Positions 44,774 through 45,290 of a DNA stretch of 60,664 nucleotides are shown here, one piece after another (the first letter of the stretch is position 1; every line of letters starts with the position of its first letter). The stretch is taken from the NCBI RefSeq assembly GCF_020166435.1, contig NZ_JAINZP010000025.1:1-60664 (forward strand), written 5' to 3'. Under the pieces are notes generated by a model. It searched no databases. It saw only the letters and a list, made by a program, of their open reading frames with translations, and had not been told where the DNA came from. Origin of the DNA: Pectobacterium versatile. Lineage in GTDB: Bacteria > Pseudomonadota > Gammaproteobacteria > Enterobacterales > Enterobacteriaceae. Made by a program: the position numbers and the translations under genes.

Positions 44774-44985
44774 TTAACGTAACTCGCTAACCTTGACGTG
44801 ATCCATGTCACCGAAAACTTGATTATCGCCAACCATGCCCCAGATAAAGGTGTAGCGTCTGGTGCTAACACCGGAATGCATCGACCAGATCGGTGAAATC
44901 ACCGCCCGCTCGTTTTTTATTACTCTAATGACGGGTTTCCTGCTGCTGCCCATCATGTGGAAAACTGCTGTTTCATTACTAACCG
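44774..44985 (-). pseudogene. kduI: kduI fragment, 5-keto-4-deoxyuronate isomerase C-terminus
   Basis: About 70 codons match the end of KduI: NETAVFHMMG, NERAVISPIWSMHSGVS, YTFIWGMVGDNQVFGDMDHV, then SELR and the stop. KduI is about 278 residues, and from the stop at 44774 an intact gene would reach about 45610, past the kdgF start. The conserved zinc-binding His region (CHTHERRMEVYF) is absent, and upstream of the junction near 44985 the sequence no longer resembles KduI. The fragment itself also differs from the consensus where MGQPQETRHIVMHNEQ would be expected. It cannot encode a working isomerase unless another copy exists elsewhere. Confidence 0.85.
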
Positions 44986-45290
44986 TTCTTGGTGAAAGCG
45001 CCGGGCGAAACAGATGGTGTTGCGTGGCAGTGACAACGTCACCTGTTCCTCAAACTGCCCGGTTCTTTCTTGTTATGCGGGATGATAGTTTGGATGGGAT
45101 GTGAATTCAATAAAAATGAAATAATGTTTTATTTATTTCTTGAGGGCCGTCATGGTTTTGCTTATTTTATGTTTCTTCTGGTACTGATGTGGCTAAAATG
45201 TCGCAATCCATAGTCATACACTCGTTGTCGTACACGGTTTGTTGGCGCAATAGAAGGTATGGCAATAAAGAGCGTTAGAGGAGAGAGATG
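44986..45290. other. Region between the kduI fragment and kdgF, 305 bp
   Basis: It holds about 115 bp of sequence unrelated to KduI, the KdgR box at 45114-45136 and the kdgF leader. No ORF is supported. Confidence 0.6.
45114..45136. promoter_or_regulatory. KdgR box between kduI fragment and kdgF
   Basis: AAATGAAATAATGTTTTATT with further TATT matches the KdgR consensus (AATRAAAY...RTTTYATT). In Dickeya a shared box serves the divergent kdgF and kduI genes. Confidence 0.7.

What the first reader, a model, noticed from the sequence alone, without database searches (positions are those of the whole stretch)
44774..45290. kduI reduced to a C-terminal fragment inside an otherwise complete pectin cluster
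The pathway from unsaturated uronate to KDG normally needs KdgF, KduI and KduD. Here kdgF and kduD flank a fragment of about 70 codons lacking the zinc site. Either another isomerase acts elsewhere, or the strain uses a different route. The 115 bp replacing the lost part is of unknown origin. If kduD relies on the kduI promoter, the deletion kept transcription by joining the KdgR-controlled upstream region to the fragment.
Basis: partly seen in the sequence, partly recalled or inferred. Interest (0 to 1): 0.75.

Follow-up and report, generated by a model that had tools for sequence, protein, structure and literature searches.

The report
Broken kduI leaves conserved RNA leader
A pectin-digestion gene is broken in this plant bacterium and many relatives, a second intact copy elsewhere can probably stand in for it, and the supposedly unknown DNA beside the break is the gene's own start region, which encodes a conserved folded RNA not found in the RNA family library searched.

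Summary
The kduI between kduD and kdgF is cut to its last ~69 codons by a deletion of about 0.68 kb, seen in 15 of 25 Pectobacterium genomes; 10 are intact there, so it is not a misassembly. The remnant has lost protein-level constraint (pN/pS 1.5, against 0.05 in intact copies): a pseudogene. The pathway is not broken on paper: a full-length second KduI, beside kdgT on another contig, keeps the four presumed metal ligands and is strongly constrained.

The "115 bp of unknown origin" is the native kduI leader. It encodes a ~76-nt hairpin just after the predicted start site, with a nearly invariant loop and covarying stems. The model built from it hits all 25 Pectobacterium, 9 Dickeya and 9 Brenneria loci tested, and a few related genera. 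Rfam gave no match. Every kduI-loss allele examined in these three genera keeps it (one lacks an inner arm). Its role, probably a cis-acting leader of the operon message, is inferred; one Brenneria genome keeps it although kduD is broken too. Separately, the last ~45 codons of kduI show unusual synonymous constraint in Pectobacterium and Dickeya, hinting at a second cis element before kduD.

The parts
44774..44983 (-). kduI remnant: C-terminal ~69 codons, without the original start codon and ribosome-binding site; pseudogene
   Evidence: match to KduI residues 210-278; pN/pS 1.50 in 15 deleted vs 0.05 in 10 intact genomes over 45 codons
44976..44990 (.). deletion junction (about 0.68 kb missing: kduI codons 1 to ~209 plus ~55 nt upstream with the ribosome-binding site)
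   Evidence: DNA matches of the 10 intact genomes end at query 1046-1048 and resume at 1052-1062 with about 650-700 bp between; alignments; 55 nt for G006
44982..45075 (-). kduI leader RNA: hairpin (stems span 45069-44994), nearly invariant apical loop CACUGCCAC; now upstream of kduD
   Evidence: covariance model 103 bits (the same sequence is in the model's training set); MFE -35 kcal/mol, z -4.09 for 44990-45080; covariation; no Rfam match
45082..45110 (-). sigma-70-like promoter of kduI/kduD (TTGAAT-17-TATCAT); start site inferred near 45075
   Evidence: consensus scan, 9 of 12; 2 sites found vs 1.6 expected in shuffles, so weak alone
45115..45133 (.). KdgR-box-like palindrome AATGAAATAATGTTTTATT
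   Evidence: 2 mismatches to a recalled consensus; 2 matches in the window vs 0.08 expected; pi 0.0 at 45111-45150 in 25 genomes
44711..44870 (-). nucleotide-conserved block: end of kduI remnant plus kduI-kduD gap, candidate cis element upstream of kduD
   Evidence: 20-base windows here have pi 0.008-0.066 over 25 genomes vs 0.07-0.33 at 44871-44990; synonymous constraint of kduI codons 234-278
43929..44690 (-). kduD, 253 aa, intact
   Evidence: NCBIfam TIGR01832 453.8 bits, cut-off 338.85
45288..45623 (+). kdgF-type cupin protein, 111 aa, divergent
43863..43890 (.). inverted repeat with A/T runs just after kduD, possibly a bidirectional terminator
   Evidence: read directly from the sequence; not scanned by a tool

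Best explanation
kduI beside kduD is a pseudogene made by a deletion of about 0.68 kb that removed the start, the ribosome-binding site and the first ~209 codons. It was probably tolerated because the genus carries a second full-length KduI (KduI2), in a cluster of an IclR-type regulator, kdgT and kduI2, which should supply the same enzyme step. What stayed is the promoter region with its KdgR-like box and the 5'-terminal structured leader RNA that formerly preceded kduI; both now stand upstream of kduD. The leader therefore most likely acts in cis on the operon message and not on kduI alone, as a 5'-end stabilising or regulatory hairpin whose conserved loop binds a partner. Shown by sequence: the deletion, decay of the remnant, the intact second copy and its constraint, conservation and covariation of the hairpin, and its retention in the loss alleles examined. 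Inferred: enzyme activity of KduI2, transcription start, kduD expression from this promoter, and what the hairpin does.
For: Deletion in 15 of 25 genus genomes, intact in 10. KduI2 full length in 24 of 25, including all 15 deleted; the exception G007 has intact kduI1. KduI2: NF002091 436 bits, cut-off 250; kdgT TIGR00793 527 bits, cut-off 454; HxHxxxxE at 196/198/203 and H245, and a kdgT-kduI2 gap of 11-12 bp, in 23 of 23 inspected of the 24; best solved relatives are KduI structures 1x8m and 1xru; pN/pS 0.047 in the 15 deleted genomes. Remnant pN/pS 1.50 vs 0.05; shuffles of the genome labels reached the pN difference 0 of 300 times. Leader: z -4.09; 92.3% of cells paired vs 36-52% when slid, 10 pairs with double changes vs 4.8 shuffled, 0 of 500; forward hits in 46 of 48 sources, most of them also in the training alignment; one independent hit in Ewingella, 33 bits, E 2.9e-6. 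Natural contrast from print: D. poaceiphila has a kduI pseudogene (555-bp internal deletion) and does not grow on polygalacturonate (PMC10319131, passages); a Dickeya genome here with kduI cut to residues 1-46 and 224-260 (G179) has no other KduI match.
Against: Brenneria G181 (L380) keeps the leader at 95 bits although its kduD is broken too (only 362 of 759 bases match; reading frame lost), so retention there is not explained by need for kduD. Retention in Pectobacterium may partly reflect shared descent of the deletion. In L376 the 5' arm of the inner stem is deleted. RNAalifold on the 48-sequence alignment found only the outer stems (9 pairs); the inner stem rests on single-sequence folds, whose structure was taken from one of the sequences. 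Five of nine Brenneria genomes have no full-length KduI, so loss is not always compensated. No expression or enzyme data were available; in P. carotovorum PccS1 two genes named kduI show no listed change in planta (PMC7214478, passages).
Confidence: 0.8

Rival explanations
1. The strain lacks the isomerase step and uses a different route for unsaturated uronate.
For: kduI beside kduD is broken; five of nine Brenneria genomes show that total loss of KduI occurs in relatives.
Against: A full-length KduI with all presumed metal ligands, under strong constraint, is present in the window's genome.
Confidence: 0.05
2. The remnant is still a functional small protein or domain.
For: Open frame of 60 aa with ATG; C-terminal residues look well conserved.
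Against: pN/pS 1.50 vs 0.05 in intact genomes; stop codons inside the matched stretch in 3 of 15 (G001, G002, G017); the original start codon and ribosome-binding site are deleted.
Confidence: 0.03
3. Misassembly or sequencing error.
For: The window's genome is a 69-contig draft.
Against: The same short interval in 15 assemblies, including a one-contig genome shown as 100% identical over the 1695 bp queried (G012).
Confidence: 0.01
4. The leader hairpin is a ligand-sensing riboswitch for a pectin-catabolism intermediate.
For: Conserved loop and covarying stems at the 5' end of a catabolic operon; retained after kduI loss.
Against: No terminator-like site found in 44650-45330; in 9 of 10 intact genomes the hairpin ends 67-68 nt before the kduI start (29 nt in G007), so it does not itself cover the ribosome-binding site; a single extended hairpin is simple for an aptamer.
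Confidence: 0.2
5. The leader hairpin is only a DNA-level inverted repeat (operator or mobile element) with no RNA role.
For: It is an inverted repeat; the opposite strand also scores weakly (18.6 bits in the window; up to 33.8 elsewhere); it is kept in a genome where kduI and kduD are both broken.
Against: Many G-U pairs and 103 vs 18.6 bits by strand in the window; the loop is among the most conserved parts; only the kduI/kduD leader position was hit over 30 bits on the coding strand in the stretches searched.
Confidence: 0.1

Closest known systems
KduI, 5-dehydro-4-deoxy-D-glucuronate isomerase (NCBIfam NF002091; PDB 1x8m, 1xru)
   Same: KduI2 of this genome matches over its full length with the four presumed ligands; the remnant is homologous to the last 60 positions
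   Different: The window copy lacks residues 1 to ~209 and is no longer under protein constraint; KduI2 is 67% identical to an intact kduI1 (G006) and linked to kdgT, not kduD
kduI pseudogene of Dickeya poaceiphila (PMC10319131, passage)
   Same: Large internal deletion in kduI
   Different: Reported unable to grow on polygalacturonate; the comparable Dickeya genome G179 has no second KduI
kduI_1 and kduI_2 of Pectobacterium parmentieri (PMC6192338, passage)
   Same: Two kduI types reported in that species
   Different: The passage seen does not describe a truncation, the kdgT linkage or a leader RNA
Rfam cis-regulatory leader RNAs (release 15, 4227 families)
   Same: Structured 5' leader of a catabolic operon
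   Different: No family matches the leader

Membership tests
KduI (the window remnant) | full length, score over NF002091 cut-off 250 | tested here: not met
   81.5 bits, positions 218-277 only
KduI (the window remnant) | four metal ligands H196, H198, E203, H245 (recalled) | tested here: not met
   the remnant starts near residue 210, so only the H245 region is present
KduI (KduI2, contig C56) | NF002091 score over cut-off, full length | tested here: met
   436.4 bits, 1-277 of 277
KduI (KduI2, contig C56) | four metal ligands | tested here: met
   23 of 23 KduI2 copies inspected
KduI (KduI2, contig C56) | isomerase activity | not testable with these tools
   needs an enzyme assay
IolB (contig C68 match) | TIGR04378 over cut-off; explains the best PF04962 hit, so it is not a third KduI | tested here: met
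   330.6 bits, cut-off 205; the neighbour's iolE-like nature is recalled from its sequence
Conserved structured RNA (leader) | covariation above controls | tested here: met
   0 of 500 shuffles reach any of five measures; slid structures 36-52% paired vs 92.3%; RNAalifold alone recovers only 9 outer pairs
Known Rfam family (leader) | match at or near gathering score | tested here: not met
   window: only RF01128, 24.3 bits vs 45, at 45284-45333 outside the leader; Dickeya none; Rahnella only RF02875, 14.5 vs 79
Riboswitch (leader) | expression platform (terminator or ribosome-binding-site masking) | tested here: inconclusive
   no terminator-like site; hairpin 67-68 nt from the kduI start in 9 of 10 intact genomes
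Riboswitch (leader) | specific ligand binding | not testable with these tools
   needs in-line probing

The most novel reading that the evidence does not exclude
The kduI-kduD leader is a new class of ligand- or protein-sensing RNA that tunes pectin catabolism in soft-rot bacteria and their relatives, working together with a second cis element hidden in the last codons of kduI; repeated loss of kduI is a natural experiment that strips away the protein and leaves the regulatory elements upstream of kduD.
Probability: 0.2. Interest if true: 0.8.

Novelty: new member of a known kind. Interest (0 to 1): 0.5.

Why it matters
It turns an apparent gap in a textbook pathway into an ordinary case of redundancy followed by gene loss, and it exposes a conserved leader RNA, absent from the RNA library searched, in a well-studied pathway of crop pathogens. 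The natural deletion alleles make the leader testable, since it is kept where the gene it precedes is lost. Annotators should not read the fragment as a working KduI, nor read its loss as inability to use pectin.

Tried and rejected
CRP site in the kduI 3' end (GTGA-N6-TCAC, 44797-44812): 22 matches with up to 2 mismatches in the window against 29 expected, so not supported alone; a predicted D. solani CRP regulon does list kduD (PMC6127512, passages).

RNA structure of the kduI 3' end and kduI-kduD gap: RNAalifold on 34 and on 9 sequences gave little covariation (1 of 48 and 5 of 70 pairs with double changes). A test on one decayed Dickeya copy gave 3 compensated, 3 half-changed and 5 broken of 33 pairs, P about 0.025 for compensation and 0.13 for broken pairs: inconclusive, not claimed.

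Third KduI: the strongest PF04962 hit, on C68, is IolB, not KduI.

History of the deletion: trees from rpoB+carB+gyrB and from kduI2, gyrB plus the iol region and the flanks scatter the deleted state (a nine-genome group around P. carotovorum, itself with weak support of 39; G013/G020/G022; G014; G016; G023). By eye eleven of the 15 look alike at the junction and four (G013, G014, G016, G022) differ. Single origin plus recombination and repeated deletion could not be separated. carB was used for 23 of 25 genomes.

KdgR box before kdgT-kduI2: none in the kdgT upstream stretch of the window's genome at up to 3 mismatches, and one of 20 genomes (G003) at 4; upstream of the IclR gene a weak match in 14 of 20 genomes at up to 4 mismatches (the IclR gene was not recovered in 3 of the 23 stretches).

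Loss elsewhere: of 80 named kduD loci, 55 have a full kduI, 9 a partial one (one of these cut by a contig end) and 16 no match. Of those 16, L084 (Brenneria) and L086 (Edaphovirga, decayed pieces) have the leader and 14 other enterics do not; but most enterics with intact kduI lack it too (4 of 45 have it), so these 14 say nothing on retention.

Papers: searches (listings only); passages seen in PMC7214478, PMC6192338, PMC8282894, PMC10202176, PMC6637903, PMC4881948, PMC10319131, PMC8386352, PMC6127512, PMC4448311. In the listings and passages seen none describes the Pectobacterium truncation or a kduI leader RNA; subscription papers are mostly not in the library.

Full report
Observation. On the minus strand between kduD (43929-44690) and the divergent kdgF-type gene (45288-45623) lies a kduI remnant, 44774-44983, that matches KduI residues 210-278 only. 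An NCBIfam KduI model scores it 81.5 bits against a cut-off of 250. Three of the four presumed metal ligands are outside it; the H245 region is inside (ligand numbers recalled; positions checked on KduI2).

Distribution. The 1695-bp stretch from kduD to kdgF was searched in all 25 held genomes of the genus. Fifteen, the window's genome included, have the short interval (596-645 bp as measured); ten have an intact kduI there (1263-1303 bp; 278-aa frames in all ten). Members named by matching contig lengths: deleted, P. carotovorum DSM 30168, P. brasiliense CFBP8736, Pectobacterium sp. CFBP8739, P. peruviense and P. fontis; intact, P. polonicum, Pectobacterium sp. PL152, P. aroidearum L6, P. zantedeschiae and P. 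betavasculorum. On a tree of rpoB, carB and gyrB the deleted state falls into about five separate groups, several nodes being weak; flank trees interleave deleted and intact genomes too. Whether this is one deletion spread by recombination or several deletions is open.

The remnant is a pseudogene. Over 45 codons without gaps pN/pS is 1.50 among the 15 deleted genomes and 0.05 among the 10 intact ones; no label shuffle of 300 reached the difference in pN. Third-position diversity is similar in both sets (0.066 and 0.055), while first and second positions rise in the deleted set (0.043 and 0.046, against 0.000 and 0.010).

The missing enzyme is elsewhere. The window's genome has two other PF04962 genes. 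One is IolB. The other, on contig C56, is a 278-aa KduI (436 bits, cut-off 250), 12 bp downstream of kdgT (527 bits), with an IclR-family gene upstream of both. It is present in 24 of 25 genomes, including all 15 deleted; G007 lacks it but has intact kduI1. All 23 copies inspected keep H196, H198, E203 and H245 (G023 was not inspected). Its pN/pS is 0.047 in the 15 deleted genomes. Its closest solved relatives are KduI structures. Two types of kduI were already mentioned for P. parmentieri (PMC6192338, passage). Close relatives of the kdgT-kduI2 pair occur in Brenneria G184 and in G046, and a more distant one in G095.

A natural contrast. Dickeya genome G179 has kduI cut to residues 1-46 and 224-260 with stops, and no other KduI match. 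A review reports a 555-bp internal deletion in D. poaceiphila kduI and no growth on polygalacturonate (PMC10319131, passage); that G179 is this species is my guess. Transposon studies report kduI mutants of D. dadantii with limited growth in chicory and kduI as a fitness gene of D. solani in lesions (PMC6637903 and PMC10202176, passages). In Brenneria, of nine genomes searched, three have intact kduI1, one has only KduI2 (G184, with broken kduI1 pieces) and five have no full-length KduI. So loss is sometimes compensated and sometimes not.

The 'unknown' 115 bp. The stretch from the junction through kdgF is 93-95% identical in the intact genomes, and the part upstream of kduI aligns throughout: it is the native leader. 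Read on the kduI strand it folds into one long hairpin (44990-45080: -35 kcal/mol, z -4.09, 0 of 200 shuffles). It begins about six bases after the start site expected from the promoter-like TTGAAT-17-TATCAT (45110-45082, itself no better than chance). A KdgR-box-like palindrome lies just upstream (45115-45133) in a stretch without variation in 25 genomes. In intact genomes the hairpin ends 67-68 nt before the kduI start in 9 of 10 (29 nt in G007); in the 15 deleted genomes it ends 278-328 nt before kduD.

The leader is a conserved RNA. I aligned 48 leaders: 23 of the 25 Pectobacterium loci (two identical ones left out), 9 Dickeya, 9 Brenneria loci, Samsonia, Prodigiosinella, one unnamed genus (G038), Edaphovirga and three Rahnella. 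For the hairpin, 92.3% of cells pair, against 36-52% when the partner is slid by 1-3 columns. Ten pairs have changes on both sides (4.8 in shuffles) and 26 cells do (6.4); none of 500 shuffles reached any of the five measures. The structure came from one of these sequences and the rows are related, so the shuffle counts are not probabilities. RNAalifold recovered only nine outer pairs on the same alignment. The loop CACUGCCAC is nearly invariant (exceptions L375, L084, L147). Folds of eight other leaders gave z from -3.4 to -5.3 in seven and -1.6 in the Rahnella one.

Where it occurs. A covariance model scored the window leader at 103 bits. In 68 sources (the window and 67 loci, mostly kduD loci of named enterics) it hit ten on the coding strand over 30 bits; only one of these, Ewingella (33 bits, E 2.9e-6), is independent of the training set. 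It gave no hit up to E 1 in the E. coli, Citrobacter, Kluyvera, Klebsiella and Yersinia loci or in the kduI2 locus L062. In a second set, mostly training sequences, it hit 46 of 48 sources; the two without were kduI2 loci. Rfam has no match to the leader in the window, in a Dickeya locus or in a Rahnella locus.

Retention after gene loss. The loss alleles examined keep the leader: Pectobacterium 15 of 15 (96.5-106.4 bits), Brenneria 6 of 6 (L374 81, L375 75, L376 69.5, L379 95, L380 95, L084 65 bits), Dickeya L350 (86 bits) and Edaphovirga L086 (65 bits). In L376 the 5' arm of the inner stem is missing. In L380 no kduI is detectable and the leader ends 46 nt before kduD, but kduD is itself broken there, so that case does not support need for kduD. 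Leader diversity is similar in deleted and intact Pectobacterium, while the stretch next to the junction has decayed. I infer that the leader serves the operon message and not kduI alone.

A second lead. Synonymous diversity in intact kduI falls from a median of 0.305 to 0.07-0.10 near the 3' end in Pectobacterium (10 genomes), and from 0.516 to 0.11-0.17 in Dickeya (8), but not in 16 other enterics (0.75 against 0.71). These 16 are those of 61 named loci whose kduI my filter recovered (E. coli and most Citrobacter and Kluyvera were dropped by it). Degenerate codons that vary, in codons 234-278 against 1-233: Pectobacterium 7 of 41 vs 117 of 222 (p 2.7e-5); Dickeya 11 of 41 vs 168 of 223 (p 4.8e-9); all 24 Pectobacterium, Dickeya, Brenneria, Samsonia, Prodigiosinella and G038 copies 33 of 41 vs 214 of 223 (p 0.0015); other enterics 41 of 41 vs 218 of 225 (p 0.6); kduI2 29 of 40 vs 159 of 223 (p 1). 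The codons are not independent, so the p values are guides. This block and the gap before kduD stay conserved at DNA level in the deleted genomes (44711-44870). It suggests a cis element for kduD. It is not indispensable: Brenneria L379 and L380 lack the kduI 3' end. Structure tests there were inconclusive.

Judgement. The finding as given is a real but ordinary pseudogene backed by a paralog.

Noticed in passing
L062:7905-10839 (own genome, contig C56): IclR-type regulator, kdgT and kduI2 form a conserved cluster; kdgT-kduI2 relatives at ~94-96% identity in Brenneria G184 and in G046, a genome with no DNA match over 47 bits to a Dickeya kduD.
   Followed up: partly
window 44711-44870 and kduI codons 234-278 of Pectobacterium and Dickeya: Strong synonymous and intergenic constraint upstream of kduD; includes the block CCCTACAGTAAC and a short CGAC..GTCG repeat before the kduD start.
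   Followed up: partly
Brenneria genomes G181, G185, G186, G187, G188: No full-length KduI match. kduD matches over its full length in G185, G187 and G188, only in part in G181 and not at all in G186.
   Followed up: partly
L380 (Brenneria G181): kduI gone and kduD broken, yet the leader hairpin still scores 95 bits.
   Followed up: partly
G007 (P. betavasculorum NCPPB 2795): The only one of 25 genus genomes without a kduI2 match; it keeps intact kduI1 (reciprocal loss).
   Followed up: no
window 16340-16358: A second KdgR-box-like site (2 mismatches), upstream of an ORF at 16449-17684.
   Followed up: no
G008 contigs C2 and C3: carB (large carbamoyl-phosphate synthase subunit) appears split between two contigs; probably an assembly break.
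   Followed up: no
window 45284-45333: Sub-threshold Rfam match to a C/D-box family (RF01128, 24.3 bits vs 45) at the kdgF start; taken as chance.
   Followed up: no
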